Shown: piece by piece, positions 1-56,196 of the stretch | Position numbering within the stretch: position 1 is the stretch's first letter | Layout: every line of letters starts with the position of its first letter | Notes under the pieces: generated by a model | The model's database searches: none | What the model saw: the letters and a program-made list of their open reading frames with translations, nothing else | Told to the model about the DNA's origin: nothing | Translations under genes and position numbers: made by a program | NCBI GenBank assembly: GCA_963971425.1 | Contig: OZ020521.1 | Span: 1,180,501 to 1,244,500, forward strand | Length of the DNA: 64,000 nucleotides | Direction of reading: 5' to 3' | Source: Bryoerythrophyllum caledonicum | Taxonomy: Eukaryota > Streptophyta > Bryopsida > Pottiales > Pottiaceae

Positions 1-839
1 CCACACATCATGTGCGTTAAAGTTAACAAGTAGTAGAAATGGATTATCCCATTGGATTAGCTCGTGATTTTTGATCAAGATGGCTAAATAAGCCTTTCCA
101 TGCGCTAATTCCTCAAATAGAAGCCACCTTGTGGCAACTACGGATTTTATGAAGTTCACTAAAAAAATAAATAGAAAGGAAGAAATAAAGAAAAGGTTGA
201 AAAACAAAAAAAACAATAGAAAGGGATTAGAATTAGAAGTGGTGGAGAAGAATTTACCTCCTACCGAATCGGGGACCGCCATTGGCGACGGTGAGGAAAT
301 CACGGAAAAATCTAGGAGAAGAAGAAGGAGGATGGTGAGGAGAAAAGAAAAAGAATGAGGCGTTAAAAGCCCTTAAAAAATAGTCAAAGGGGTCCAAAAA
401 GAAGTGGAAAAAAAAACCCTCACCAATCACTAAGTAAATTAGGAATTCCCCCAAGCAAGGGAAATTCAAGCTAGGTAGAGTTAGATTTTTTTGCATCCTT
501 GAATTTAGCTTAATAGCTCACTTATTGAAATCATGCACACACATGTGGCATGGAGTCAAAGTTTAGATTTTGATATTCCTTGGTTAGTGGGACACCCACT
601 TTTGTTATATGCAAGGGTGCCTAGTGATTTATTAGCTTTTTAGTTACTATTGTTTAGTGTGACCATTAATGTGCCCATCCAAAATTGGCGGCTGTGAACG
701 ACGAAAGGAACGACCTTGGGAACAAAGAAGGAAGCAAGGGCCTTGGGGTTACCCCCCTTGGAGGCGCTCATTCAAAGTGTGTGTGGTAGGAGCTAGGAAA
801 CCGAGAGAGGTCTGTGGAAGAGAGAGAGAGATAGGGTTC

Positions 840-1600
840 CAGATTTCCCCCTCCTGCTCGTGTGATTTCTCACTCCAGCTCGTGTAATCTTCTTCCTCCT
901 GCTCGTCGTGCTTGCTCACTCCAGCTCGTGCGATCTTCTTCCTCTTGTTCCTCGTGTGCTCTTGCTCGAGCTCGTGTGATCTGGTTCCTCTTGTTCATCG
1001 TGTGATCTTGCTCCAACTCGTGTGATCTAGTTCCTCCTGTTCGTCGTGTGATCTTGCTCCAGCTCGTGTGATCTTCTTCCTCTTGTTCGTCGTGCTTGCT
1101 CACTCCAGCTCGTGTGATCTTCTTCCTCTTGTTCGTCGTGTGATCTTGCTCCAGCTCGTGTGATCTTCTTCCTCTTGTTCGTCATGCTTGCTCACTCCAG
1201 CTCGTGTGATCTTCTTCCTCTTGTTCGTCGTGCTTGCTCACTCCAGCTCGTGTGATCTTCTTCCTCTTGTTCGTCGTGCTTGCTCACTCCAGCTCGTGTG
1301 ATCTTCTTCCTCCTACTCGTCGTGCTTGCTTACTCCAGCTCGTGTGATCTTCTTCCTCCTGTTCGTCGTGTGATCTTGCTCCAGCTCGTGTGATCTGGTT
1401 CCTCCTGTTCGTCGTGTGATCTTGCTCCAGCTCGTGTGATCTTCTTCCTCCTATTCGTCGTGTGATCTTGCTCCAGCTTGTGTGATCTGGTTCCTCCTGT
1501 TCGTCGTGTGATCTTGCTCCAGCTCGTGTGATCTGGTTCCTCCTGTTCGTCGTGTGATCTTGTTCAAGCTCGTGTGATCTTCTTCCTCCTGTGATCTAAC
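840..1600. repeat. 46-bp minisatellite, about 16 copies
   Basis: Successive copies of CCAGCTCGTGTGATCT recur exactly 46 bp apart (for example 1105, 1151, 1197). Two unit variants alternate irregularly: one with CTTGCTCACTCCAG, one with TGATCTTGCTCCAG. Forty-six is not a multiple of three, so the Glu/His/Arg-rich minus-strand frames across it are not credible genes. It forms the loop of the flanking inverted arms. Confidence 0.9.
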
Positions 1601-2479
1601 CTTATCTCGTTTACCAGTTCGGGGCCGGGGCTTCCGGCTCTCTCCCCACACAAATTCAGTCTCTCCCCTGTTCTTTCTCTTCCTACTCCTCGCACACTAA
1701 CCGAATGAGGCTTCTCCAGGGGGTAACCCCCAAACCTTTGCTCTCCTTGAGTTCCCAAAGAAGTTCCTTGCCGCCTTTGGCCTTCTTCCATAAATGGCTT
1801 CCTTCTTACAAAACCTACTAACCCTATGACTCCTAATTCCGTGCCACCCTTGCATTTAACAAGAGTGGGTGTCCCACTAACCAAGGAATATCTAAATCTA
1901 AACATTAACTCCATGCCACATGGGTGTGCATGATCTCAATAAGTGAGCTATTAGCTAATTTCCAAGGAGGCTAAATCTAATTTAATCTACCTAAATTGAA
2001 TCCCCTTTGCTTGGGGTAATTCCTAATTTTACTTAGCGAGTGATGAGGGGGTTGTCCAAGCCTTTTGGACCTTTCCCACTATTTTTTTAAGGGCTTTTAA
2101 GCCTCTTCTTTTCTTTTCTTCCCTTCACCATCATTTCTCTTCTTCTTCTTCCATTTTTTTGGTTTTGTGATTTCTTCATCGTGACCAATTGCAATCCACG
2201 ACTTGGTAGGAGGTAAATTCTTCTCCATCACTATTAATTTTAATTTTTTTCTATTGTTTTTTGTCTTTTTTGTCTTTTCTTCATTTTTTCCTTTCTATTT
2301 TTTTTTTTGGCTAACTACCTAAATTCCGCGATTGCCAATAAGTGGTTCCTAGTTAAGGAATTAGCGCATGGAAGGCTATTTAGCTATTTTGATCAAAAGA
2401 CCACGAGCTAACCAATGGGATAACCCATTTTCACCACTTATTAGCCTTAATGGACCCGATGTGAGGTCCATTCATCACC

Positions 2480-2503: not shown

Positions 2504-2593
2504 CAGGGTTTAGGGTTTAGGCTTAGGCTTAGGGTTAGCATTAGGGTTAGCATTAGGGTTAGGGTTAGGGTTAGGGTTAGAGTTCAGGGTTTA
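2504..2593. repeat. Interstitial telomere-like repeat
   Basis: About 90 bp of degenerate AGGGTTT and AGGGTT units, with variants GCTTAGG and AGCATT. Units of the plant TTTAGGG type and of the TTAGGG type are mixed. It abuts the element tip at 2502, so the element may have inserted into, or healed against, telomere-like DNA. Confidence 0.8.
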
Positions 2594-3891
2594 AGTTTAG
2601 TATTTTTTGTTGTATTCAATGTTTAAAAATTTTAATCCACAAGTAGAAAAGTATATACCTTGATTGTTTAATAACAATTAATCTTCTGGATTTTGATGTA
2701 TTTAGAAATTGTACTCAAATTAACAAGACTTCATTCATTTGTTAATTTTCAACTAACATCTTTCATTTGAAGGTTATTCCAAAGTTTGAAATTTATCATG
2801 TTCAAATACACCATAATACATGTAGAATACCGCGGCCGCCACTTTGGAAATTAAATTGTGAAAAGTAGGTTCATAAATCAAATGTGTAAAATTATATTTG
2901 CAAATGAAATGTGTAAAATTAAATTTGGAAATCAAATGTATAAATAAAATTTGCAATTTAAATTTACAATTCAAAAAAGTTCACGTAAAGAAAGTAATGA
3001 AAATTCATGTAAAGAAAGTAATGAAGACTCAAATCACACAAGATAGTAATGAAGAGTCAAATCAGGAAAAGAACTTCACGGCTTGTAGAGAAGTTCACTC
3101 GAGACAAATGATGGAAAAATCATCATTAGAAGTGCCAAATGGTAACTCAGCCGTCGTGGTCGACGGCTTGGTTCCATCATCATTACTTTTTCCATTACCT
3201 CCCTCCCGCCACCACCAACTCCAGCCCTTCCAGCTCTTCCAACTCCTCCCATTCTTGCTTTTTAAACGCTTCTTGTTTTCTTAGCTTCCCCGCCTTCGTC
3301 TCTCTCCTCCCGTGTTGTTTTTTCTTGCGATGTGTATGGACTGCAGTACGTTAGCGTGAGTTTGAGTGCGAGGTCAATTTGTGAGTAGATGCAGCAGGAG
3401 TGCGAGGTGTTAGTGTCGGTCGAAGGCAATTTCGTGAGCACGATCAAGAGCATCGTCGGAAGTTCTAGGAGGAGCACAAGCAGCGCCGGTGTTTGAAGGT
3501 TCTAAGGGAACCAGCAAGCGAACAAGCGAGCGAGCGAGTAATTTTTTCGAGCGAGCGATTGCAGCTAACGGGTGCGTCCAACGGATGCAATCCTAGTGCT
3601 AACCAACGGGTGCCTCGACGCGTTGATTCATACAGACGAAGGTAATTTCAGCGCTCATTCTTATTCCTCAATTTTTTCTTGCATGCTTGAAGGATTTTAG
3701 AACCAAAACAGCGTACTAAACCTAGGTTATCTCTCCAGTTCGTTTTTTTTTCACTTCCGAATAGAGTTCCTCAAATGAATATCAATCTGCTTATACTAGT
3801 TACGTATTAATCATGTAACTAATCAATAACGACTAATTCCAACATGTTTTCTTGTGATCTTCAGATTGCGCACTGTTGTGGACGCAGCACA
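2594..3891. other. Intergenic or 5' leader region upstream of gene A
   Basis: AT-rich to ~3060, with a diverged ~30-bp direct repeat (AATGTGTAAAATT words, 2846-2975) and a duplicated TTCATGTAAAGAAAGTAATG-like unit (2983-3030). From ~3100 it is pyrimidine-rich, with short (GCGA)n runs at 3520-3565. The small Ser/His-rich frames at 3139-3354 look compositional. The stretch before 3892 probably holds the promoter and leader of gene A, but I cannot point to a TATA box with confidence. Confidence 0.4.
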
Positions 3892-4144
3892 ATGTCCGAA
3901 ACCACCTCAGAAAATCCCGTCAAGTGAGATTCCATGCTCTGAATGATCTCTGTTGTGATACACACGAACCTACATCAATGAATATCATATGATATTCACT
4001 ACGTTTAGTTATATTATGCATTGCAATTCAAGGTGCAGTAGATAGAAAGTTCAATGTAACCCTCCTTATTGAGAGAAAGGTTTCCAAAGCACTTCCTTTA
4101 TCAGTGGATATAGCGATATCTCCTTGAGGTTTAGGGTTTTAGAT

Positions 4145-4784
4145 GATAGGAATATATTCCTATCCTACTCTGCGGTGGGCTTGGGTTGCTTGATAGTTTG
4201 TGGATCGGTAGATCTTCCCATCTCTCTTTGTGGGGTCATAGGGTTGGGATTAGTTCAGAGGGAGTTCGTAGATCGGAATATATTTCTATCCTACACTGCG
4301 GTGGGCTTGGGTTGCTTAAGAGTTTGTGGATCGGTAGATCTTCCCATCTATCCTTGTGGGGTCTTAGGATCGGTATTAGTTCAGAGGTTGTTTGTTGATC
4401 GGAATATATTCTTATCCCTCTCTGCTGTGGGCTTGGGTTGCTTAGGAGTTTGTGGATCGGTAGATCTTTCCATCTATCCTTGTGGGGTTATAGGATCGGT
4501 ATTAGTTCAAAGGCTGTTTGTTGATCGGAATATATTTCTATCCCACACTGCGGTGGGCATCTAATGCTTGAGAGTTTGTGGATCGGTAGATCTTCCCATC
4601 TCTCCATGTTGGGCCATGGGATCGGGATTAGTTCAGAGGGAGTTCGTAGATCGGATTATATTCCTATCCCACACTGCGGTGGGCTTGGGTTACTTGAGTG
4701 TTTGTGGATCGGTAGATCTTCCTATCCCTTCGCGTGGATACTTTGCGACGTTTGGTTTAGTTTTGATCGGTAGATCCCATCATC
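4145..4784. repeat. Palindrome array in intron 1 of gene A (126-bp period)
   Basis: Eleven copies of a 20-bp palindrome start at 4145, 4203, 4271, 4329, 4397, 4455, 4523, 4581, 4649, 4707 and 4765. Spacing alternates 58 and 68 bp (the last step is 58), giving a 126-bp tandem unit. Two types alternate: GATAGGAATATATTCCTATC, perfect at 4145-4164, and an AGATCT-centred form near GATCGGTAGATCTTCCCATC. The last copy is degenerate. The sequence between palindromes (GCGGTGGGCTTGGGTTGCTT, TTAGTTCAGAGG) is also repeated. Confidence 0.93.
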
Positions 4785-6235
4785 CCTATCCCATCATGCC
4801 GTTTGATCTGACCATTTTGTTTGTATGAGCAGTGCAAACTTGATTCCGTGGTTGGAGACGAACAAGGACTAGCGTTCTCACTACCTCCGTGATGCGGTGA
4901 ACTGTGGTGTCAAGGCCGTTGGCCGCACATTCAATGAACCTAAACCGAGCGCCTTGTTCATTGCAAGTAACGTCACCGAATGGGGTCTTGCTTGGATTCG
5001 GGATGACTTGAAGCGGACAATCCAAATTGCGCCAGTTATGTTTGTAGCCGATGTCGCCGAGGGACGTGAAGATACGATTGCACTCACGATTCAGAATGTG
5101 GAGGTGCTGGATGTGGTGGACGTGCCTGGAATTGAAGACACTATTCTTCTTGTTATTAAGGAGTTTGCAAGTGCGAAATGTTCGAGGATCTATGGCCTTT
5201 TTGTATCAACAAAGGATATGGTCCCCTGACTTAGTGCTCCGGTTAGAGATCACGGTTTTTCTATTGCTAGGACAGGACCTGACGTTGATCGAATTATTGA
5301 CAGTTGGGCGGAGCTGCGAGCTTGTCGTGATGCCGCCAATAGCAAGTTGGCCAAGCAGGATCCGCCTACACCTCCCAGAAAGAAGAAGAGGCCGTCACAG
5401 GCAATTGGGGAGACTTTAGAACTTGGGGACACGAAGAAATAGCAGAAGAAGTCAGATCCCAAAATTGAAGAATTCTCATTGGCTCAGGTTGTGATGTTAT
5501 CGAGCAGTTCTGTTTCAAAGTATTCGGCACAGGACCTACAGAAAGTGAGGGTGCTGTATGAGAAAGAATTCTTGAGTCTGCAAATATTTGGTATGCGCCC
5601 GGTAAAGAGACTCGACAATGCAAAGACTGACCTCGTCGTCGGAATTCAATGTCTGCATAGGGCCACACCCGGGGTGGTGGTGTATCAGAAGCTCGAGAAG
5701 AAACGTGTTTAAGATGGTTGACCACAAGCGGACAATGTCGTTTCAAGCTTCGCTTCAGCATCTGTACGTTATGCCGATTAAGAACAAGCCTGTTGCTGAC
5801 GACTTTGGTGTGGATCCCGTCGATAGTTTATTCGAGTATTTTGTGACAAAGCCGACAAGACGGGACATTACAGATGATACGCACTACATTATCATCGGTG
5901 GGCAGCACTGCGTCGCTGCGCATAAAGTCCTTAATGCCGAGAAGTCTCTTAGTGATGATGAACTAGCCGACGCACAAAGCTTCATAATTACCATCGTTTG
6001 GGCAAATCTAGCCAACTTTGGGAAGTTGTGCTATTACTCAAGAATCCTTAACCAAGATCTGACCGGAGTTAGGGCGGAGAGCAACTATCTTACTCAACTG
6101 AGACTTGCACGGGCCCAGGCGGGGTGTCCAAAGCTGTCTCCTAATGGTTTGGCACACTAAATTCAATGTAAGTCTGAAACCATTTGTTAAATTGCATTTT
6201 CTTGTCCGCATTGTTATGTTGTTTACCACGGAATT

Positions 6236-6496
6236 GATTGGAATATATTCCTATCCCAAGGGTCCTCTAATCACCGCAGTGGTCACAGAGATCGAAATAT
6301 CTTTCTATCCGCAGTGTCCTTTGACGTCTGTTATTATTGTTGGATGTTGTCGTTCTAAGGATTTTCCCATGCACTTTTTGACCCCGTTGCATTAGCGTAT
6401 GCTCTAACTTCTCTGCCTCTAGACTTCGCATCATTCATATAGATCGAAAGATCTTCCTATCCTCAACGTCTCACTCGATGGGAAGATCTTCCTATC
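6236..6496. repeat. Palindromes in intron 2 of gene A
   Basis: Four copies at 6236-6255 (GATTGGAATATATTCCTATC), 6290-6309, 6442-6461 (GATCGAAAGATCTTCCTATC) and 6477-6496 (GATGGGAAGATCTTCCTATC). Both the AATATATT-centred and the AGATCT-centred types are present. Spacing is irregular here, unlike intron 1, so these look like scattered sites rather than a tandem satellite. Confidence 0.88.
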
Positions 6497-8012
6497 ATAC
6501 CCTCGTGCTTTCTTCGATCCGAGTTTCTGATGATGTTCTTTGTGTCGATTTTTTTTGTGCAGGCTTGGCTAGATAAGGTTCTTGTTGTTTTCACGAAGAA
6601 TGACTTCACAAAAGATGATGCCACTAGTCAGCCAAAGCTGCCGCTTCTCTTCGTCGATGAGCGGGTTTATTAGACCTGGCTTAGCATCCAAGAGAACTGG
6701 ATTAGTGGATTACTACCTGACCCATACATGGTGCAATGCACTTTTCCAGGCAGTGCGGACGGCGACTCTACCAACGAGGCCGATGATGTGGATGCTATGG
6801 TGAAGAGGGAGAGGGTAAAGCAGAGGCGGTACCAAAGTAGGGCCTTGAGAAAGGCCGATCTTCAGCCGCTGTATGCCATGTGGGAGACCGATATTGACAG
6901 AGTTGCAAAGCTGGTCATGGAGAAGAAGTGCTCAATTAAGTCGACCAAGTCCACAAAGAAGGCTCATGTTCTTAAGGGACTTGAATACTGGTGCAGCATC
7001 AAGAAGAAGAGACTCATCAAAAATGAGTTTATGCACTACTTTAAGATGAAGCCACTGAAGTCAAAGACTCAGAAGGATGTGTCTTATACGGAGACGGAGT
7101 ACGGTGATGCGGTCAATGAATTCAAGGTTTCGGAGTTTGTCATTGAGTCTTAGTATTAGAGGTTGATGAAGGATAAGGGTGGCATTAAATTCTTTGCAAA
7201 GCGAGGGAATAACTTGGTGCCATCCTCCAAGCCAGAAGACTTTCCAGCCGTTCTGAAGTTGCTCTTCGATCAGCAGAGGCAAATTTCATCGCAGGAGCGT
7301 CTGCCGGAGCCGTCGACTACCGTTGAGTCGTTTTCCACCTTTTATAGGTGCAACACCATGGACAGGCTTACTGGGGATGTTGAGAAGTCTACCCGCTTGT
7401 CCACATTATTGGAGAAGGGATGGTTGGCAATGGATGAAAACGTGGTGTTTGTTTCCTGCTTCGTTGATCGAGATATTGGCTGTGAATCCGATTTCAACGG
7501 TATCTATAAGCGGGTCGTGAAAACTTTGCAGGCCATGGAGTACAAGGATGAGCATCAATTTTGGAGGGCTCGTAATCCTAGTGTGTTTATCACCGACCGG
7601 GATGGTATGGTGGAGGTTGCGAATGCTATTGCGGAGAAGGATTCGACGGTTCACCAGATCAAACCATGGAATTTTTCATCAACTTTATATATCACGGAGG
7701 GTACTGAGGGCTTCAAGAGACCTCCAACTCCTGAACTAACACTTCCTCTCTACTTCAATAGTGTCTATGGGAATGAATAGGGTTGCCAGCCTACGGCATC
7801 CTTTCGTCGATTCTTTGGGAACGACATGCCATTCAAGTCTGTAGTATCCGCATCGGATTTCAAGAATGCGACAATGCAGTGGAATCAGCTCAAGTGGGCG
7901 AATTTCAATATCGACGCAGTTGATGATATTATTGGGACACTTGCGGCGCCCAAAAATGTCATTGTGAACATCGGTGGAGGCCCTGCAATAACCTGGCTTG
8001 GTTTGATAAGTG

Positions 8013-8032
8013 GATAGGAATATATTTCGATC
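8013..8032. repeat. Palindrome in intron 3 of gene A
   Basis: GATAGGAATATATTTCGATC, a single near-perfect copy about 100 bp before the acceptor CAG at 8128. It belongs to the same family as the arrays at 4145 and 6236. Confidence 0.85.
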
Positions 8033-8739
8033 TCCCCGCGGTATGCTATGATGTGTCTGATTGTTGTTGTTGCATTGTGATTGTTGGCATTCCAAGTTTT
8101 CAATTGTGTCGCTTGATTTTGCTTGCAGACAAAGGGCGCGCAAGTCATCGAGGTCGTCTATTCGAAGGACAAACGTCTAGCTGCCATAAGGACGGCCACA
8201 GGTATCTGGGACTCTCAAAAAGTGGCTGCTGTAACAGTTCCTGAACAAGAGAAACAAACCAAGAAGAAGCAGCCCAGGATGAAGGAGCCCATGATGATAG
8301 AGCCCAGGGAAAGACAGCCTAGGAAGAAGGAGCGGGCCTCGAAGAGAGGGCACGATCGTAAGAATTTGGTCTCTGCCGACGAGCAAGAGGTGATTGTGTC
8401 GTCCAGGCAAACGCAGAGGGAGGAGGCAAATAAGGACGAGGAGGAAGAGCAGGAGAACGAGGACAAGGTGGAGGACGACAACGCGGAGAGGCGGAGGAAA
8501 CGACAGCAAGAGCCATCTGATGAAGAATTGAGCACGGAGGACGAGCGGGAGGACGAGCCGGAGGACGAGTCGGAGGACAAGGAGGAGGAGATCCAAGTTC
8601 GCCAGCCTCGAAGGAGCCGCTACTCCATCAGCATGACGAGTTTCTATTGTCTCAGGCTCCTGTAGGAGAAGGCTCCTCTCCGCACAGTTCTTAAGTATGA
8701 TGCAGCGGCTAATTCCAAACTCAATCACCAGAACAATTA

Positions 8740-9009
8740 ATCTACTGACGATTTATAACAAATTTTTAGATGCTCAGTAATCTAATAGGGAATTTTTTTG
8801 GTTTACTACTGTAATTTTTTTTGTTTTAGAAGTTCCTCGATTAGTCTTTGTGGATTGGATGATCCTTTATTCCTCAGTGAGTATTAGAGGATAGGAAGAT
8901 CTTTCGATCCACATTGGTCTTACGCTTTGCTCATTTTTAATACGAAAATTTGAGCACCCTAATTCTATCATATTCTAATTCTCTATCCTAAATCTATGCC
9001 GTCGGGGTT
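8740..9009. other. Gap between genes A and B with one palindrome
   Basis: AT-rich 270 bp carrying one palindrome, GATAGGAAGATCTTTCGATC (8890-8909). Everywhere else in this locus the palindrome sits in introns, so this gap could itself be an intron: a possible donor is GTAGGA at 8661 and a possible acceptor AG at 9017-9018. That would make A and B one gene. Confidence 0.5.
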
Positions 9010-9893
9010 ATGTGCAAAGGGGATCCCTCCATTGGGAATGCTCGACGGTGGCCTAATATCCAGGACGTGAGTGCTTGCATTGGTGAAGACGTGGTGGTAC
9101 GTCAAGCTGCTCATACCGAGGCGATGGATGGAGTGGCGTCGTTGTGCGACATCGAGCATGGAGATGTGAGTGGAATGATCGATGAAGGCATCGAGGACAA
9201 CTCTCTTGAGACCCTTGTTGAAAAGCTGCCACAGGACATCAAGGCAGTTGTTGCACCGTTGCCGAAATCGACTGTTTCGAAATATAAGAAGCCAGTATTT
9301 ATATATACGACGGAGTATACCCCGGGAAAATCTGGCTCTAGGACGAGAGTGACATGTCCGATTGTACATTTATCTCCACCGAAAGTTCCATCGGACGATG
9401 TTCAGCGTTCTATATCCGGCACGATGCCAATGGAGGTAGATGCATCATCTCAGCCTAGTTCCAACGCTGCACTGGGGACTATCTCGGATCGTGAGCAACA
9501 CTCGGCTGCAGATACACTTGCCAGACTTCTTGCTACTGATTGCTCCGCGTCTTCTCCAACTCCTCAAGCTCGGACTTCTTCCCGAGATGGCGTGGAGATT
9601 GCGGAAGAATTGTTGGCTGGGATATTCGATGAAGCTAGCGAATCTCTGCAGGCCTTCAGGCTTCAGTCCTCCTGCGAATGTGTTGAAGTCTGCGGTCAAT
9701 GATGTAGATTCAGACTCACTGAAGTTTAGCCAGGATTACAAGGTCGACTCGGAGTTGCTTCATGATGAAGCTGCTGTTGGGGAGAAGAATGCATGCTACG
9801 GTGCCCATTCTGGTGGTCGACCCTCTACTGAAGGTACATCTCTTGGAGGCCGCTCTACCTTCACTACTCTCCTCTTTTTGCAATGTATTGATA

Positions 9894-10073
9894 GATGGGA
9901 ATATCTTTTGATGTCATCGTCTTTTTGGTGCTCTATATATCTAGATAGGAAGATCTTTTGATGTCCTCGCCTCCTTCATTTGGTGCTTTATAGATCTTGA
10001 TAGGAAGATCTTTCGATGTCCTAACCTCCTCCTTTTGGTGCTCTATATTGCTAGATAGGAAGATCTTTTGATG
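9894..10073. repeat. Palindromes in the first intron of gene B
   Basis: Four copies at 9894-9913, 9944-9963, 9999-10018 and 10054-10073, spaced 50-55 bp. The typical form is GATAGGAAGATCTTTTGATG. They are separated by repeated TCCTTTTGGTGCTCTATAT words, so this is again a short tandem array. The two halves are more diverged than in intron 1 of gene A. Confidence 0.88.
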
Positions 10074-10918
10074 TCCTTCCCTTTCTACTAACGCTTGATT
10101 TTTGGTTCGTTGCAGCTGAAATACCTCCACCCGCTCTGACTGCCGTCCCTCGCTGTGCAAAGGTAACGGATCCGAGGTACACGGTCGTCCTGGACTTGAA
10201 TGGATTTCTGGTCCACAAAATTGATAGCTGTCGCAGTTGTATCCCTAGACCCGGCTGTGTTCCGTTTTTGAACTGGTTGTGGGATAAGGCTAATGTTGTG
10301 GTATGGAGTTGCGCCATTCCGAGAAACATTGAATTCATGTTAGACTGTATTTTGTTTGGTTCTTCTCTCAAACGAGAGCAACTGCCGGTTTTGTCACAGA
10401 ACGATGTGACGTTGTCTTCCTTTCCCAGAAGCAAGGGCAAGACAGACAAGAAGTACATGATGAAAGATCTTAGAAAACTTAGAGGTGTTCTTGAGCATGT
10501 GGACCTTGATCGGGCATTGCTTGTTGACGACAGCTCAGAGAAGAACCTCTTCAACGGGCAGTTCAACGTTGTTCATCCTTCGGAGTGGTCTGGTGAATCG
10601 CCGGACCGGTTCCTCATGAACACCATGCTTCTGTGGCTGCACATTATGATTGCCTCTAAGCTCCCTGTTGTTGATTTTGTTCGAGAGAATCCTCTTTCCG
10701 GATGTGGGGCTAGTACTGGATTTAGGAAGTCTACCATCGCACGTAATATCGTATTAGGGTGTTCTAAACTATGGGATTCCAAGAATGGAAAATTTCACTG
10801 ACTAAGCAGTGCTATCGGTGATTTGTTTATTTGTTAATATGGCTTCAATATATCCTTGTCAATGGTTTACAACTACCACATGTAACACGCTTCATGTCCT
10901 CTCTTTCTGTGATGCCTA

Positions 10919-10938
10919 GATAGGAATATTTTCCCATC
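10919..10938. repeat. Palindrome in the second intron of gene B
   Basis: GATAGGAATATTTTCCCATC, one copy about 35 bp before the acceptor at 10973. With it, every proposed intron of the locus carries at least one palindrome. Confidence 0.8.
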
Positions 10939-11695
10939 TAACTTCCGGCTCTTCTCTTTTGTTATGTTCGCAGCCACTCCGCGACGACTCAAAAAAAATC
11001 ATCGTGTTGTCTGTGAACGGATTGCTTTGATTTGAGCAATACTATAACTGCACCCCCCGATGCTTCGATCACAACAACATTATTGTTCGACCTGGTCTCA
11101 TAGAGTTCTTCCAAATCCTATTGAGGTCCTTCCATGTTGGTATATGGTCGTCCATGGTCCCCGGACGGCTGAAGAGGGTTCTTCAAGTGCTCCTCCCCAA
11201 TGACATAAGGTCGAAACTTCTCTTCGTTTATGGACAAAACAAGTGCTCAAGGCCACAATTTTATCCTTACTGTTACAAGGTTCTTTGAAGACTATCAATA
11301 GACCAAAAGACAAAGAAAACTTGCCTTCCTGACAAAGTGTTGATGGTTGATGATCAACCAATGCGGCATGTCTTTAACGGAGACATGGCTTGCTACTTTC
11401 CGAAGCCTTGGCGTGGTGAAATGGTCTTGCCCAATGCATCCAATGTCATACCAAATATTACTACAGCATTGATTCCGTTCATTCTTCCGCTGCGATCTTA
11501 TGCCTCGGTGAAAAACTATCTACGTCAACATCAGATGGATGGAAAGTACAAACAAAGACTGCTTGAATCATAGCACAGTGACCGAGTACTGCAAACTTTG
11601 TAGAACTAAACTGCATTACATGGTTGGTTTTATCATTTTTGTTTTGCCACAGCTTCTCATTCACTTTTGATTTATGAATAAAGTCTTCAATGAGT

Positions 11696-12060
11696 ATTAC
11701 TGTCTTTCTTCGATTGCCCTTAAACACCTATTAGTTTAATGCTTACTAGTTAATGTGTTTCAAGGATCGGCAGATCTATCAATGTATCTATAGGAAGATC
11801 CCTCTATGTAGCTATCATTTGATAAGTTTCTTATTGTGTATTGGTGATCCATGATAACAATTCAATGGCTATTACTGTCTATCTTTGCGCCCCACTTGAA
11901 CGCCTATTACTTTTATGCTTACTTGATAATGTGTTTCATGGATGGGCACATCTATCAATATATGTATCTATAGGGAGATCCCTCTATGTAACTGTCGTTT
12001 GATCAGTTTCTCATTCAGTTTTGACCCATGATAACAACTCAATGGCTATTACTGTCTTTC
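11696..12060. repeat. ~176-bp tandem duplication downstream of gene B
   Basis: The word ATTACTGTCTTTCTTCG recurs at 11696, 11871 and 12048, giving two units of 175-177 bp. Each unit contains a decayed palindrome relative (GATCGGCAGATCTATCAATG at 11765 and GATGGGCACATCTATCAATA at 11941) and a (A/G)GAAGATCCCTCTATG-like word. It looks like the worn edge of the palindrome-bearing locus. Confidence 0.75.
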
Positions 12061-12149
12061 TTCGTGCACATTTATTGTAATATTTTTCAATAATTTGCTA
12101 TAATGGTAACATTGACAGTGTTTTTGGGTCTAGCATCCTGTACATAATA

Positions 12150-12792
12150 TTGTGCTAGAGTTTAGATTTCATCCTAAAGTCTAGATTTAGTTAAATGTGG
12201 CATTAGTATGTAAAATCCGTCGATTAGGCTTGATTTGTTCTAGACGTAACCTCCTTGTCTAGAGTATTGTGTATTGTAGGGATATATGTAAAGTTTAAAT
12301 TATTGGTAAAATTGCGCTATTGGTAATCAATGGGTTGATGTGGGGTGATATAGTTTCCGTGTTGTCTCCCAATTAGTGTGACATGTCTATTAAAGTCACC
12401 ACATAGTAAATGTGTGCGATTTTGGTTACTATTAATTTGGGTGGTAAAATTTGGGAATGTGGATGCCTTGTGTATCATTGTGAGGAGACCACCTCTAGCC
12501 GGAGTGTATGGCAAGCGTTGTTGGATACATAGCGTAAGTGCATGAGTCTTATTGAAAATGAGATTGCAGTGAGGAAAAATTCTTTGGATGTATTTGGTGG
12601 ATTTTGTAGCAATGAGTTTGGATTCTTGGATGGTGATGATAGCTAGAGGTGTGTTTCAATGGGTGATTAGGTTTTGGAGGGAGAGGATGGTTGTTTTGAG
12701 GGATGAGGTGTTCCATGTAATAGTACATGTATTGTTATTGATGGTGTGAGGGATGTACGGGGGTAGTGAGGGCGGATATGTGTATTGTAATA
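12150..12792 (-). pseudogene. LINE-2 ORF2, endonuclease part
   Basis: Minus-strand translation gives ITWNTSSLKT, IIQE-type IQESKLIATKSTKYIQ, YTPARGGLLTMIHK, THLLCGDFNRHVTLIGRQ, YQ-RNFTNNLNFTYI and SLIDGFYI, each matching LINE-1 at 60.18-60.85 kb. These are APE-type endonuclease motifs (Asn, Glu, GDFN). Several in-frame stops are present. The LINE sequence ends shortly after the LIDGFY motif. The fragment resumes across Tc1-A at 14436. Confidence 0.88.
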
Positions 12793-12794
12793 TA

Positions 12795-14433
12795 CAGTGG
12801 CGACCATAGATAGTTGTTCAAGAGGAGCTTTTTTATAAAATCAGCTACCAAATCTTCATGAACTCTCATAAAATAGCAAGAACACAACCACAAGCTCATA
12901 TAGTTGCAACAAGCATAAAACACAACCACAGGCACATATAGTTGCAACAAGCATAAAACAAAAAGTTTCAATGAAAATATGAATTAGAAAAACACACAAT
13001 AATTCAAATGTGCAACAAGCATATACGATTCTTTATGATCAAACTGATTTTTTTTGCATATCAACTGTAGAAAACAAGACTAAAGATTACTAAACACCTT
13101 TACAACTCAATGATTCAACCCATAAGAACTCACAAACACTACCACCGCGTGTAGCCACCTTTGCTTGGTAGACATCAAGAGCTCTTTGAGGCATAGAGCG
13201 TATCAACTTCCTGACAACATCAGGCTCTACATTGTACCAAATTTATTGGATCTTCTACCACAAGTCACTTTTACTAGTGGGTTTCTTCTTAGACCTTCTC
13301 AGACGACGATCTACTTTATTCCAAAGATGTTCTATTGGATTGAGGTCGGGTGATTGTGGAGGATGCCCAATAAGCTGGCATTTTTGAGCATGCAACCAAT
13401 CTACAACATAATGTGCAGTATGCTATGGATCATTGTCATATTGGAAAATAACCTCACCTTCTTCTAAACCTTGCATCTCTATAGTGCCCATGAGTTCCAT
13501 CTCTAAAATATCGCAATATACATATTTATCCATCTTCTCTTCAACCAAATGAAGCTTGCCAACTCCTTCTCAACTCATACAACCCCAAACCATTAAGTTT
13601 CCTCCTCCTTGTTTGACTATAGATTGCACATGCTGATCTAAAAGACGTTCTCCACTCTTTCTCCAACAAAACTGACGTCCATCTGAGCCAAAAAGATTGA
13701 ATTTAGACTCATCGAAAAAAATGACATGAGCCCCAAACTCCCAATCTGCATGCTTGCACTTCTTTGCCCACTGCAAACGATGTGCTTGATATTTCTTTGT
13801 CAAAAGTGGCTTCTTGGTCTTCACACATGCTGTCAATCCTTGCCTCCAAAGACTCCTTTTAACCGTATTATCACTCAATCACAAGCCCTCAGATCGTAAC
13901 ACTCTTCCTATAGTTGCCGTTGTACTAGTATTTGGATCATTTAATCTCCTCACAATGTCACGGTCACCTCGTTCATCAAGAATTCTAGGTCTACTAGGTG
14001 AAGTTTTGTTTATTAGGCTCTCTCTCACGAAACATTCGCACTATGTCAAAAGAAGTGCTTCGAGGAATGCCCAAAACTACTGAAATCTCACCATATGAGT
14101 TGCCTCGCTCATACATCTCAAGAACTGCCCTACGTTGATTCTCAGACCTTCTACGAGCCATAGCAAATGACCTAAGGCCTCACAATTGCACTTGTTATAA
14201 AAAGATAGTGGTGTGTACAACTTGTGTGCATATTAAGTTGTACACACCCCTTCATGATTTTTGCATGTATAATATGTACAAGTGGCGAATTTTGAGGGAG
14301 ACAATGTTAAATAGTTGCCATGTGGTGTACTAATTAAAGTTGGCCCTAAAAATCTTACTAATCCACAATCTAAGCTAGAGTCAACACATGTTAGAAGGGT
14401 GGTTCACTGTCCGAAGACTTTTGGTCGCCACTG
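12795..14433 (-). mobile_element. Tc1-A: Tc1/mariner-type DNA transposon, 1639 bp
   Basis: Terminal inverted repeats CAGTGGCGACC (12795-12805) and GGTCGCCACTG (14423-14433) are flanked by TA dinucleotides (12793-12794 and 14434-14435), the standard Tc1/mariner target duplication. It interrupts LINE-2 ORF2 between codons matching LKCLDPIP and PPLPYIPP of LINE-1. It holds one decayed transposase gene on the minus strand. Confidence 0.93.
13090..14161 (-). pseudogene. Tc1-A transposase (DD34E type), decayed
   Basis: The start is ATG at 14161 (MARRRSENQRRAVLEMYERG), which opens an N-terminal helix-turn-helix region. The catalytic core follows: FFDESKFNLF (first Asp), FQYDNDP-HTA (second Asp) and PPQSPDLNPIEHLWNKVDRR (third acidic residue, DD34E spacing of Tc1). 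GGGNLMVWGCMS precedes the second motif. About 355 codons, the usual Tc1 length. The frame is continuous but has five in-frame stops: one TGA between the HTH and the core, a TGA after GCMS, a TAG after DNDP, a TAG and a TAA near the C-terminus. Not functional. The nearest relative here is Tc1-B, clearly a different family by its terminal repeats. Confidence 0.9.
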
Positions 14434-15789: not shown

Positions 15790-17502
15790 CAGTGACTCAC
15801 AAAAGTTATGGGCCACCCTCTATGAACGTGAAAATTAGAAAATATCTTCTAAACTAATGAGAATTAATAGGTAAGATTAGTCATCGAGACCACATTTGCT
15901 GTGAGGAACATGTGGTTACAATTTTATTAAAAAAAATTACATTGAAATGAGAAATTAAAAGAATTGTGCAACAACCATGGCCAAGAACATTTGTTGATTT
16001 GATATGAAATCATGAAAATACAAACTAAACTTGATCAAAGTGTATGCAATGAACTTGAAAGCTAGTAAGTAGCGGATGGTACATCATCTACAAGTCTACC
16101 AACGTGCGTATCCACCCTTAGCTGCAAGAAGATCAACCACCCTTGTTGGCATTGTGCAAATGAGCTTCTCTATATATTCCACTTCAATGTTCTGCCAAAC
16201 GACTTGGATCTTCTTCCACAAGTCATCTTTGCATGTTGGCAAAGTGCCAGACAACCTTAAGCGTCTATCTACTTCATTCCACAAGTGCTCGATGGGATTT
16301 AAATCAGGAGATTGCGGTGGCCACTCCAACACGGAAAAATCCTGCCTCCACAACCATCGTTGCACAAGACCAGATGTGTGCTTTGGGTCATTATGATGCT
16401 GGAAGATCACTTGTGCTTCATCAAGATCTTGTCTCCCAATGGTATCAACCAATTGCGAATCCAAAATGTCAAGATAAACTTGCGAATTCATGATGCCATC
16501 AATGCGGTAGAGATTTCCAACACCTGCCCAACTCATGCATCCCCATACCATAATGCTACCACCACCTTCTTTAACCGTAGGCTGCACATGACAATCACGA
16601 AGAGGCTCTATAGGATTTTTCCAACACCACTGACGGCCATCTCAACCAAAAACATTGAACTTTGATTCATTTGACCAAATGACATGGCTCCAATCTTCTA
16701 CTTCACATTCCTTTGAAGCCTTTGCTCATCGTAAACGCTTCTGTCTATGTTTTTTTTGTCAACAATGGTTTCTTCTTCTTCACTATAGATCCAAGCCCTT
16801 GCCGCTAGAAACATCGACGGACAGTCTCGTTACACAAACAAAGACCCTGAGCTCGCAACTTACGACCTACAACTATTGCATTTCCTGATTTTGGCTCATT
16901 CAACATCCTCACAACAAGTCTCTCATCACGTATGCTCAGAAGACGTGGTCTTCCTAATCGTGGACAATCGTGCACCCGTCCATCTTCTTTATATCGTGCT
17001 AGAATGCCCCCAACTGTGCTACGAGGAACGTGAAGATGACCTGCTATGAAAGTGATCTTCCAGCATGATAAATTTGGAGTGAGTTTCCAGCATGATAATG
17101 ACAAGTGATCTTCCAGCATGAGTTTCCTGGAATTTCACTCACTCAAAGCTATAATTTGTGAACGCTTATAAAAACTAGTTTTCGTCATCTTGACCACTCA
17201 AAGTTGTGAAGGCTTGCAACATATGACCTGTAAAAGCTCTCAAAGATCTCTATGCACATAGAAAACACAAGTGAAGCATGAAGCCACTGGAATCAACATA
17301 TGTAGTTGGCCACCTTCAAGATTCATTGAACCCCTCCTACAAAAATGCAGCACTTGTATCACCCATAGGAAGCCAGTTGCTACTGCAACACATGATGATG
17401 ATTCAGCATGCCAAATTTGGAGTGAAGATTCATCGTTTTGAATTTTTAGTTGCATGCCAAGTGGCTTCATGCTCACTGGCCAGGAACTTTTGTGAGTCAC
17501 TA
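15790..17502 (-). mobile_element. Tc1-B: Tc1/mariner-type DNA transposon, 1713 bp
   Basis: Left terminal repeat CAGTGACTCACAAAAGTT (15790-15807) pairs with AACTTTTGTGAGTCACTA (17485-17502), with one mismatch at the outermost base. TA flanks lie at 15788-15789 and 17503-17504. It sits in the 3' part of LINE-2 ORF1. The terminal repeats differ from Tc1-A, so it is a separate family. Confidence 0.92.
16096..17188 (-). pseudogene. Tc1-B transposase (DD34E type), decayed
   Basis: Start ATG 17188 (MTKTSFYKRSQIIALSE), stop at 16096-16098. Motifs in order: HTH with HVPRSTVGGILARYKEDGRV, the linker GRPRLLSIRDERLVVRML, HVIWSNESKFNVFG (the first catalytic Asp is Asn), GGGSIMVWGCMSWAGVGNLY, IFQHHNDPKHTSGLV and PPQSPDLNPIEHLWNEVDRR. 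The last 164 codons are uninterrupted (16096-16587). Upstream there are stops and at least one frameshift near 16750. Near the N-terminus, TCATGCTGGAAGATCACTT-like words occur three times (17040-17125), an internal short duplication that disrupts the HTH. Not functional. Confidence 0.9.
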
Positions 17503-53649: not shown

Positions 53650-54234
53650 GACAATGGAAAGCCAAGTGTGGTTCTAGTTTTAGAACTCTAAATTAATGTT
53701 AAGCGGAGAATCGAGATGGAGACCTAGAGGAGCTCCGTTTTTTCTGGTGAGGGTTACTCTGGGAGTTAGTCGCAGATCGCGAGTAGAGGGCAACAAGAGG
53801 TGTTGGGCTTGTTGATGATCCCCCCTTTCTCTCCAGATCTGGTAGTGTATGAGCTTGGGGAGGGGCGTGTAAGTGTTGGGAATGGGATTATGCTAGACAA
53901 GATCTACTTGTGTTAAACTTTCTGGAAATGAAGCAAAACTTTGTTGCAAGTCATCTGTAAGAGCTGGAACTTAAAGTGTTGGGTGATTAGGTCTGATTTC
54001 ACTCCAGATCGTAAGAGCATATAGTAGATCTGCTAGATTAGATGAAGACACGCACATAGCTCACACATAGACTCCCAAGGCAGCCCAGATCCAAAAAACG
54101 TCAACACAACAAAGCTGGAGCGCGAAGATCAACACAAGCTGTCACCAAAGTCTACACTGCCCCCCCTTGAGCTACGCAATTTCCTCAACCCTCTCTCTTA
54201 CTTTTGCACAGTATTTTTTCTTTCACTTGTTGTT

Positions 54235-55494
54235 TTGGTTCATTGTCTCACTAGGCCGTCCACAATACACACACAATCTCACTTAGATCACACAACTAGA
54301 TCAGAAGCACTAAAGTCTCACAAACCCCCTAGCCCTAATAGCACACAAAATAATCAATACCACCAACAAATAAAATCCAAAAACACGTTAGAAAAACAAC
54401 ACAAACAATATCACACTCCTAGGCACTATCTTAATAAACCCAGATCCATAAAAATCACGCGGAAGCGCTGTCAAAAATTACATAAGCATTACCACAACAC
54501 ACAACAGCATAGTATTCATCACGATCTCTATCCCTACATAGTATATAACAGTTGCATGTTAGTAGCAGCAAGAACACAGACAAACAGGGAGCAACCACAG
54601 GTACACAAGCGAAGACAGAACGCAGAAAGTAAACAAGGCACAGGTGAAGAACCGAGTCCACAAAACAACGAACACTGCTTCAACCCCCGAGCCCAAGTCA
54701 ACCAGACACAACATAACAAGTGGTGCATCACCAACCACAACATCAGGAGCATCGCTGGGAGAACAGTCAAAGACGACACCATCAGGAGTAACATCGAGAG
54801 AACACTCGAAGATGACTCCAGCTTACCCACAGTCATCACACAAGAAACACCAAACAATGTAGACAAGGTACGCACTTACAACACCAGTATAAACTCATTT
54901 CGATACTATCCTTGTCGCCTTATATGGTACATACAGTGTCTATATAACGTAAACCGGAAATATAATTACGAATTAACGCAAGAAACCATAAAACAACACA
55001 AGAAAAGTAAACGCACACAAGCTAACGTTACTAATAGTCAACTTCTTTCAAGAACTAGAATTGCATGTGCCCTGCGGAAATGTTGTCCATCCCACCACAT
55101 ATCTGAAGAAACTGCCATGAAGTCCACATCCAGACTACCACCCTGCAGATCAACACAACCGCGACATCAGCATGCAGCGTCCACATTTCACAGATACTAC
55201 CGACCTACAGCAACGTACTCACCTATGACTATCATAAGGTACGACACAAGACCTCTTCTCCATGCAGATCGGATCGAAGAGGGCCAACATCAAAATACAG
55301 CTCTCTCCAACACCACAACACCAACAACGCGCACATCAACAACAGGAGCAGCCCTGCCACACAACAGATTAAGCATCAGCAGAAGGAGAAGGCCTAGCGA
55401 CACAACAAGAAAGAACGATACCAGGACAGAAGAACTCAAACGACACAAGTCGACTGCAACACTAAAACCCTGCGGCACCAAGGGCAAGACATGA
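54235..55494 (+). CDS. LINE-1 leader frame of 419 codons, function uncertain
   Basis: Open from ATG 54235 to TGA 55492. The sequence is poor in T and G, which makes stop codons rare, so chance openness is a real possibility. Composition is Thr/Gln/His/Arg-rich. One segment (~residues 165-225) reads TNHNIRSIAG, then PTVITQETPNN and FRYYPC, reminiscent of the start of an APE-type endonuclease (N-x-RS, then QET). The expected later motifs (GDFN, SDH) do not follow. It could be a relic of another LINE in the leader, a real upstream ORF, or chance. Confidence 0.3.
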   Translation: MVHCLTRPSTIHTQSHLDHTTRSEALKSHKPPSPNSTQNNQYHQQIKSKNTLEKQHKQYHTPRHYLNKPRSIKITRKRCQKLHKHYHNTQQHSIHHDLYPYIVYNSCMLVAARTQTNREQPQVHKRRQNAESKQGTGEEPSPQNNEHCFNPRAQVNQTQHNKWCITNHNIRSIAGRTVKDDTIRSNIERTLEDDSSLPTVITQETPNNVDKVRTYNTSINSFRYYPCRLIWYIQCLYNVNRKYNYELTQETIKQHKKSKRTQANVTNSQLLSRTRIACALRKCCPSHHISEETAMKSTSRLPPCRSTQPRHQHAASTFHRYYRPTATYSPMTIIRYDTRPLLHADRIEEGQHQNTALSNTTTPTTRTSTTGAALPHNRLSISRRRRPSDTTRKNDTRTEELKRHKSTATLKPCGTKGKT

Positions 55495-55589: not shown

Positions 55590-56080
55590 GCGAGCAGGTG
55601 CAGAATACTACGAGCAGGAGATAAATATTGCGAGCTCAAGCAACTCAACATCCCGGAGTCAAGAGAGGAGCAGACTGGCACTGCAAAGACGAGAGCGAAG
55701 CAGCCAGACGCTGAGGAGACGGCAAGGACATCAAACGCGAGGGAGAAGAGAGACTGAAGAGCCCGAGAGCCCCCAGCGACATTAAAAGCGAAGGAGAGCA
55801 GAGACTGAAGAGCCCGAGAGCCCCTAGCGACCTAAACCATTCCCCCAGCGACCCACAGAACCTCGCCATCGACCTAAGAAGGCCCTCCAGCAACCCTCAA
55901 CATCCACCCAACGACCCACCAATACCCCCCAGCGACCTATCACACTCCCACAAAGACCCCAGGAACTACCCCAACGACCTCCAAAGCCTCCTCAGCGACC
56001 TTCTACCCCTGCCTCACTACCAGCCAACCCCAACCATCGACCTTGCAAGCCCCAGCAACCCTCCAGCGACCCACCCAAGG
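55590..56080. repeat. LINE-1 leader monomers (CCCAGCGACC and a 51-bp duplication)
   Basis: A unit GAGCAGAGACTGAAGAGCCC occurs at ~55790, with a close partner ~51 bp upstream. It is followed by about a dozen CCAGCGACC(C/T) words 20-45 bp apart up to 56075. GC-rich repeats directly before ORF1 resemble the promoter monomers of some L1 families. A regulatory role is inference. Confidence 0.65.
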
Positions 56081-56196
56081 TAAGTTACTACATTTTTTCT
56101 TTGACTAATTGGTGTACAGCGGTAGTAGCAGTGGATTGGGGTGGGACAGATATCGATACAAGAAGCGCGAAGAAAGCCCTCAGCTACACAGACCAC

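What the first reader, a model, noticed from the sequence alone, without database searches (positions are those of the whole stretch)
4145..10938. A 20-bp palindrome marks every non-coding interval of one gene locus and was not seen in its exons
Twenty-two clear copies of GATAGGAATATATTCCTATC or its AGATCT-centred sister lie in three introns of gene A, the A-B gap and both introns of gene B, with none seen in the exons or elsewhere in the window. Both centre types keep the same outer half-sites (GAT-GG / CC-ATC), which points to selection or copying of a two-fold symmetric protein-binding site. I know of no described intronic element of this form. A mobile or amplifying motif tolerated only in non-coding DNA is an alternative.
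Basis: partly seen in the sequence, partly recalled or inferred. Interest (0 to 1): 0.85.

Follow-up and report, generated by a model that had tools for sequence, protein, structure and literature searches.

The report
Self-marking palindromes in a plant transposon
A large mobile DNA element in a plant genome carries a 20-letter mirror-symmetric tag in its non-coding gaps and introns but not in its protein-coding parts, and related elements carry differently spelled versions of the tag, which suggests that each element family makes a protein that recognises its own DNA, perhaps to escape being silenced by the host.

Summary
In detail: 21 sites (≤3 mismatches) in 4145-10938, none elsewhere in the window, 0.6 expected. 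The "gene locus" is the right half of a dispersed transposon: homology between copies stops at 12203-12216 in 22 of 24 loci, and that end read inward (ATGCCACATTTAA) also marks left ends, with two pairs 17.7 kb apart. In 16 copies the palindrome occurs 256 times in 41 kb of element non-coding DNA, 0 times in 85 kb of exon, 0 times in 14 kb of flank.

Two sister subfamilies carry other 20-bp palindromes in matching intervals: GATNGTAGGATCCTACNATC and GATCGAAGGATCCNTCGATC. Four of seven non-coding intervals no longer align. The frame GAT-N-G…C-N-ATC is kept while inner bases differ.

Best reading: binding sites of a dimeric, element-encoded protein that co-diverges with its target, working like VANC anti-silencing of VANDAL elements (PMC5735166). 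It is not shown to be a VANDAL. Binder, transposase and any effect on methylation are not shown.

The parts
2505..12203 (+). Right half of a transposon copy (family F1). Right end at 12203. The left boundary in the window is not the element's end: a telomere-like tract (2505-2605) follows a different repeat at 1-2466.
12185..12203 (-). Right terminal repeat ATGCCACATTTAACTAAAT (read inward); its first 13 bases also form left ends elsewhere
   Evidence: 40 of 40 scored relatives of 12080-12203 reach the last base
3892..8665 (+). Gene A (decayed copy): exons about 3892-3923, 4833-6163, 6563-8008, 8130-8665; no family match; about 50-52% (exon 3) and 44-45% (exon 2) aa identity to F2
   Evidence: exon borders inferred from frames and splice-like signals
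4145..4726 (.). Array of 126-bp units in gene A intron 1, each with an ATAT-centred and a GATC-centred palindrome 58 bp apart (10 sites; 7-12 in six other copies)
6236..6496 (.). Four palindromes in gene A intron 2 (6236, 6290, 6442, 6477)
8013..8032 (.). Palindrome in gene A intron 3, just inside the donor side; a F2 palindrome lies at the matching place
8890..8909 (.). Palindrome in the gene A - gene B gap
8996..10801 (+). Gene B: exon 8996-9833 (fast-evolving) and exon 10117-10801 with a NIF (PF03031) domain, DLDxT changed to DLNGF; the frame ends with a stop at the matching place in F1, F2 and F3
9894..10073 (.). Four palindromes in a 50/55-bp tandem array in gene B intron 1
10919..10938 (.). 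Palindrome in the interval between the first and second NIF reading frames
10974..11573 (+). Second, more degenerate NIF-like reading frame (VLSVNG in place of DLDxT); the most conserved exon between subfamilies (82% DNA identity F1-F2, 78% F1-F3)
11686..12064 (.). 176-bp tandem repeat with decayed palindromes (e.g. 11765-11784) in the right terminal region; the F2 counterpart has sites too

Best explanation
The palindrome is a family-specific recognition site that a large transposon with inverted terminal repeats (17.7 kb between paired ends of two sister copies) carries in its introns, gene gaps and terminal non-coding parts. A two-fold symmetric (homodimeric) protein encoded by the element itself binds it. 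Site and protein diverge together, so each subfamily marks only its own copies. By analogy with VANC proteins, binding most likely counteracts host silencing (DNA methylation) over the element and so permits expression of its genes. Shown: the multicopy element, its ends, confinement to non-coding DNA, array gain and loss, and subfamily-specific palindromes at homologous places in intervals of which most no longer align. Inferred: protein binding, dimer symmetry, element-encoded partner. Conjectural: the anti-silencing outcome.
For: Sites only in element non-coding DNA: 256 in 41,118 bases (20 of them in 1,761 bases between labelled segments), 0 in 85,245 exon bases, 0 in 14,087 flank bases, 16 copies. 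Sister subfamily F2: 12 of the 15 palindromic 20-mers found are one other motif, all in introns, gap or terminal part. F3: a third motif, 4 sites, all in what I draw as introns or the last interval. Exons A2, A3, B2 and B3 align F1-F2 at 59-82% while Ai2, Ai3, the A-B gap and Bi1 give no alignment, yet each F1 interval and its F2 counterpart hold their own palindrome. Position 6 of the half-site is G or A (F1), T (F2), mostly A (F3); C occurs once genome-wide against 304, 177 and 148 for the G, T and A patterns (the C and A patterns are looser than the G and T ones). Array size varies between copies: 7, 8, 10 or 12 sites before exon 2. A F2 site lies about 700-730 bp inside the terminal repeat at 12 places. 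Proteins are under purifying selection between subfamilies: dN/dS about 0.19-0.21 in A2, A3 and the second NIF frame (dS of A2 and A3 near saturation). VANC21 shows the same layout with experimental proof (PMC5735166, passages).
Against: No DNA-binding domain was recognised in gene A or B, and single-sequence folds were too poor to use. The left half, which may encode the binder or the transposase, could not be read. No methylation, expression or binding data. VANC motifs are short and arrayed in one orientation, and the word palindrome does not occur in that paper's held text. F2 rests on one joined copy and F3 on one fragment for layout, although motif counts are genome-wide. The position-6 counts come from sites picked with the subfamily pattern, so they lean towards it; the 12 unbiased F2 palindromes agree. 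F3 also has three palindromic 20-mers that are not the motif, two of them in exons (2203 and 2874 of the reverse complement of L048). Not every terminal repeat shows the same layout: listed F2 sites lie 89 or 195 bp inside four others. Only 23 of 50 listed F2 sites were within 15 kb of the NIF or gene A hits I had typed in.
Confidence: 0.5

Rival explanations
1. The sites are transposase or accessory-protein docking sites needed for excision (like TnpA sites of CACTA/Spm elements), spread along the element to assemble a large synaptic complex or to repress transcription; anti-silencing is not involved.
For: Sites also occur near the ends: about 700-730 bp inside 12 terminal repeats and 89-195 bp inside four others, and in the right terminal repeat region. 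A palindrome suits a dimer.
Against: In the window the sites are spread over introns and gaps through 7.6 kb and are densest in internal introns, unlike the subterminal confinement recalled for TnpA sites. The terminal repeat starts ATGCCAC, not CACTA.
Confidence: 0.2
2. The sites are bound by a host factor (transcription factor, insulator or splicing-linked protein) that the element exploits.
For: They lie in introns and in promoter-proximal intron 1, as enhancer sites do.
Against: Subfamilies in the same genome use different inner bases at homologous places, which a shared host factor would not drive; 48 of 50 listed F1 sites lie within 25 kb of listed element hits.
Confidence: 0.12
3. The palindromes act in RNA or as DNA structure: intron hairpins guiding splicing or cruciforms.
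For: Many sites are in introns and would be transcribed.
Against: Sites also lie in the A-B gap, the right terminal region and within 1 kb of terminal repeats. No Rfam match in the window. Both centre types are self-complementary through the middle, leaving no loop, as protein-bound dyads do.
Confidence: 0.06
4. A passive micro-satellite or mini-transposon amplifies in DNA that tolerates it.
For: Some sites sit in tandem arrays that expand and contract.
Against: Single sites keep their places in the copies (Ai3 1, gap 1-2, last interval 1 in 16 of 16 copies); subfamilies carry re-spelled palindromes at the same places; none in 14 kb of flanking DNA.
Confidence: 0.04

Closest known systems
VANDAL21 / VANC21 (and VANDAL6 / VANC6) anti-silencing system of Arabidopsis
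   Same: Short family-specific motif mainly in introns, intergenic and terminal non-coding parts of a transposon; arrays that expand and contract; related families use different motifs (PMC5735166, passages read).
   Different: VANC motifs are 8-9 bp and lie in one orientation; here 20-bp palindromes. No DUF1985 or DUF287 match in genes A and B. Of 7 listed MULE matches in the stretch of contig 1 where terminal repeats were listed, 1 lies inside an element span. Here a 13-bp inverted terminal repeat is found. Anti-silencing is not tested.
CACTA/Spm elements with TnpA subterminal sites (recalled)
   Same: Short inverted terminal repeats of about 13 bp, arrayed protein-binding sites, an element protein that both binds and regulates.
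   Different: Terminal sequence is ATGCCAC, not CACTA; sites run through introns and gaps, not only subterminal regions.
NIF/FCP-type phosphatases (PF03031)
   Same: Gene B and the following frame match PF03031 (2.6e-12 in the window, 1.8e-16 in F2) and the F2 protein matches CTDNEP1 (2.2e-4).
   Different: Catalytic DLDET reads DLNGF in the first and LSVNG or LSLNG in the second in F1, F2 and F3: probably non-catalytic.

Membership tests
VANDAL (MULE) with VANC | Family-specific motif arrays in non-coding parts of the element, not exons | tested here: met
VANDAL (MULE) with VANC | Related families carry different motifs | tested here: met
VANDAL (MULE) with VANC | Mutator-like transposase (PF10551) in the element | tested here: inconclusive
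   None in genes A or B. One search listed 138 matches (150 of 384 candidates scored), 22 on contig 1; of 7 in the span with listed terminal repeats, 1 (C1:13722508) lies within 18 kb inward of one, 4.0% expected at random. The left half was not read.
VANDAL (MULE) with VANC | VANC protein with DUF1985/DUF287 | tested here: inconclusive
   no match in the gene A or B pieces scanned; left half not read
VANDAL (MULE) with VANC | Loss of DNA methylation on binding | not testable with these tools
   needs transgenics and methylome
CACTA/Spm | Terminal repeats beginning CACTA or CACTG (recalled) | tested here: not met
   ends read ATGCCACATTTAA
KDZ elements | KDZ transposase (PF18758) | tested here: inconclusive
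   no match in this genome, but nothing rang in any control genome either
NIF-type HAD phosphatase (gene B) | PF03031 domain over cut-off | tested here: met
   first NIF frame; second frame: 20.3 bits in the window piece (below 21.8), 23.7 bits in F2 (above)
NIF-type HAD phosphatase (gene B) | Catalytic DxDxT/V motif | tested here: not met
   DLNGF against DLDET in the alignment; LSVNG/LSLNG in the second frame

The most novel reading that the evidence does not exclude
A second, independent lineage of plant transposon has evolved a VANC-like self-recognition code: a palindromic site with a fixed outer frame and subfamily-specific inner letters, read by a co-diverging element protein (gene A, gene B or an unread left-half gene), with catalytically dead CTD-phosphatase-like domains as possible effectors against host silencing.
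Probability: 0.35. Interest if true: 0.82.

Novelty: new variant of a known kind. Interest (0 to 1): 0.63.

Why it matters
VANC is a worked-out case of sequence-specific anti-silencing by a transposon. A second one outside the Arabidopsis VANDAL elements, with three or more natural protein-site pairs in one genome, would show that self-marking of non-coding DNA is a recurrent strategy. It would also give a natural experiment on how a protein and its DNA target change together. The palindromes predict the binder's symmetry, and the inner positions (6 and 8) that differ between subfamilies give mutants to test.

Tried and rejected
Element with its left end at the telomere-like tract (2505-2605): first believed, dropped when palindrome arrays and matching terminal repeats were found kilobases further left.

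ParB-like plus DNA-methyltransferase reading of gene A (from the look of IGGQHCVAAHKVL and IVNIGGGP; recalled patterns): no support from Pfam, PHROGs, NCBIfam or PDB profiles, so not claimed. Gene A exon 3 relatives in viral contigs and genome contigs: none confirmed by tblastn. AlphaFold2 on single sequences: mean pLDDT 32 and 44, not used for fold search. Species name: not established; 58 light-harvesting matches place it in the green lineage; one paper search did not identify it. Rfam: nothing in the window at gathering scores. Transposase: MULE search not concentrated at the elements, KDZ uninformative. CACTA, hAT, Harbinger and others not searched genome-wide.

Literature: 'moss + transposable element + NLI interacting factor' 0 papers; 'NLI interacting factor + transposon' 8 papers, listing only, none by title on a transposon-encoded NIF protein; 'anti-silencing + transposable element + bryophyte' 4 papers, listing only; 'transposon, subterminal, palindromic, intron, transposase binding, plant' 3 papers, listing only, on animal transposons by title.
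Full report
What is there. The window lies at C9:1180501-1244500 of a 437-Mb genome in 894 contigs. The genome has 58 matches to the chlorophyll a/b-binding family, so it is of the green lineage; I did not identify the species. The motif of the finding, GATNGGAANATNTTCCNATC, occurs 21 times (up to 3 mismatches) between 4145 and 10938 and nowhere else in the 64 kb; shuffled sequence gives 0.6.

It belongs to a transposon. The stretch 4850-11600 recurs, mostly at 88-95% identity, in about two dozen places (50 matching pieces; 24 of 488 candidates scored). In 24 loci that hold the right part, homology to the window stops at 12203-12216 in 22 and earlier in 2 (L014 at 12169, L018 at 11709); the 22 listed junctions share the ending GTGGCAT and then differ. 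All 40 scored relatives of 12080-12203 reach its last base, which shows that the end is shared but, since the query stops there, not that it is sharp. Read inward the end is ATGCCACATTTAA. This 13-mer has 132 forward and 126 reverse places (reversed control 6 and 5). Among the 100 places listed, all on contig 1, 8 form inward-facing neighbour pairs within 45 kb; two are 17,718 and 17,719 bp long and each holds a NIF match near one end. So this is a DNA element with short inverted terminal repeats, and the window holds only the right half of one copy. An A-type palindrome array lies about 5.1-5.4 kb inside four terminal repeats; one such array was read upstream of the L006 copy. The full length of F1 was not determined. 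In the window the left half is missing; a foldback repeat (1-2466) stands there instead.

Genes. Gene A (exons about 3892-3923, 4833-6163, 6563-8008, 8130-8665) has no credible match in Pfam, PHROGs, NCBIfam or PDB profiles in the pieces tried. Gene B (8996-9833, 10117-10801) has a NIF domain (PF03031, 2.6e-12), and a second NIF-like frame follows (10974-11573). The catalytic motif is changed in both, in all three subfamilies. Between subfamilies dN/dS is about 0.19-0.21 for A2, A3 and the second NIF frame and about 0.45-0.53 for the first NIF (from the values; dS of A2 and A3 is 2.3-2.5, near saturation): the proteins are kept by selection.

Confinement to non-coding DNA. In 16 F1 copies (11 of them, L010-L020, do not reach intron 1), the palindrome occurs 256 times in 41,118 non-coding element bases (20 of these in 1,761 bases between labelled segments), 0 times in 85,245 exon bases and 0 times in 14,087 bases outside. 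Per copy: intron A2 4-5 (plus up to 2 in the unlabelled bases), A3 1, A-B gap 1-2, first B intron 3-4, last interval 1. The intron-1 array has 10 sites in the window and 7, 8, 8, 10, 12 and 12 in six other loci; for two further loci (L032, L033) the anchor was not found and they were dropped.

Sister subfamilies re-spell the palindrome. F2 (C15:9730400-9738500, L049+L047; amino-acid identity to F1 0.45 in A2, 0.50 in A3, 0.53 in the first NIF) has, in an unbiased scan, 15 palindromic 20-mers: 12 are of the form GATNGTA[AG]GATC[CT]TACNATC with small departures, 1 overlaps one of these, 1 is unrelated (in the A-B interval), and 1 is at the terminus. None is in the 5,357 bases that I draw as exon. 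The exact F2 motif has 177 genome places against 0 for the control. At 12 terminal repeats a F2 site lies about 700-730 bp inside (696-725 by end-to-end count; 703-732 by start); in 6 of these a NIF match lies 14.6-17.7 kb away in the orientation that makes the repeat the left end. At four other repeats the listed F2 site lies 89 or 195 bp inside. Of the 50 listed F2 sites, only 23 were within 15 kb of the NIF or gene A hits that I had typed in; the sites near terminal repeats explain part of the remainder. F3 (C12:3756000-3759500; identity 0.47 in the first NIF and 0.73 in the second) has four sites of a third form, GATCGAAGGATCCNTCGATC and relatives, in what I draw as introns or the last interval; three other palindromic 20-mers there are not the motif and two of them lie in exons. 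The half-site is GAT-N-G-x-A-y-z-A. Position 6 is G 30/A 12 in F1 of the window, A 7/G 3 in the F1 left array, T 32 of 32 in F2, A 7/G 1 in F3; position 8 is A 41/T 1 in F1, G 22/A 10 in F2, G 7/A 1 in F3. These sites were picked with the subfamily patterns, which favours those letters; the 12 unbiased F2 palindromes all have T at position 6. A pattern with C at position 6 has one place in the genome; one with A has 148 (control 2), which includes both F1 left arrays and F3-like forms.

Why this points to a co-evolving binding protein. F1 and F2 exons A2, A3, B2 and B3 align over most of their length (59-82% DNA), A4 not at all and B1 only in part, while introns A2 and A3, the A-B gap and the first B intron give no alignment; small alignments remain in the last interval (94 bases) and at the terminus (76 bases), and one 40-bp match in intron 1 includes a palindrome. 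A site that persists and changes in step at homologous places while its surroundings turn over, and that keeps dyad symmetry, is best read as the target of a dimeric protein. That related elements in one nucleus differ argues for element-encoded partners. The described parallel is VANC: VANC21 localises to introns, intergenic and terminal non-coding regions of VANDAL21, its motif YAGTATTAY is mainly in non-coding regions and arrayed, VANC6 targets have another motif, and the arrays expand and contract (PMC5735166, passages read); host silencing by RdDM targets the same regions (PMC10398659, passages read). I therefore favour anti-silencing (0.5), with transposition-complex docking as main rival (0.2).

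Against. No binder identified, no binding or methylation data, left half unread, F2 and F3 layouts from single copies. VANDAL membership is not claimed: of 7 listed MULE matches in the part of contig 1 with listed terminal repeats, 1 lies inward of one within 18 kb, and DUF1985/DUF287 are not found in what I could read. That VANDALs belong to the Mutator superfamily and what TnpA does are recalled.

Side evidence of methylation. In the first 20 of 99 rows the stops inside gene A exon 3 copies are 32 TAG, 4 TGA and 4 TAA; CAG to TAG is the change expected from methylated CHG sites in plants. This fits elements that are targets of silencing, but other causes are not excluded.

Noticed in passing
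G000 contig C1 (65.2 Mb): 23 of 40 scored right ends lie on C1, which is 14.9% of the genome (binomial P about 6e-10), and the first 100 listed terminal repeats, all on C1, lie beyond 12.4 Mb, while light-harvesting genes lie at 8.7 and 10.4 Mb. C1 looks like a gene-rich arm joined to a transposon-rich remainder, possibly a sex chromosome (guess).
   Followed up: partly
gene A exon 3 copies: Stop codons in decayed copies are mostly TAG (32 TAG, 4 TGA, 4 TAA in the first 20 of 99 rows), as CHG-methylation-linked decay would give.
   Followed up: partly
window 4145-4726: In the 126-bp array the two palindrome types alternate at 58 and 68 bp; 126 bp is 12.0 helical turns at 10.5 bp, so each type would lie on one face and the other type on the opposite face. 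It may be chance; the 55-, 174- and 28-bp spacings are not integral.
   Followed up: partly
gene A versus gene B, F1-F2: Synonymous divergence differs between genes of the same elements: dS about 2.3-2.5 (near saturation) in gene A and 0.73 in the first NIF exon, suggesting recombination or gene conversion between subfamilies.
   Followed up: no
window 2505-2605 and upstream of other copies: A telomere-like (TTAGGG/TTTAGGG) tract of varying length precedes gene A in the window, L045 and L046; an AT-rich minisatellite lies further left in L046 and in L050.
   Followed up: partly
window 1-2466: A large foldback repeat (inverted arms spread over 1-619 and 1845-2466) encloses a 46-bp tandem array (873-1592).
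   Followed up: no
window 13570-13878 and 16096-16641, minus strand: Tc1-like transposase pieces (PF01498, PF13358) in a green-lineage genome.
   Followed up: no
window 58642-62856, plus strand: 1,404-aa open frame with reverse transcriptase (PF00078) and a below-cut-off endonuclease match (PF03372): a LINE-type element.
   Followed up: no
window 54046-55494 and 55828-57822, plus strand: Long open frames (482 and 664 aa) upstream of the LINE frame with no Pfam match at 0.001.
   Followed up: no
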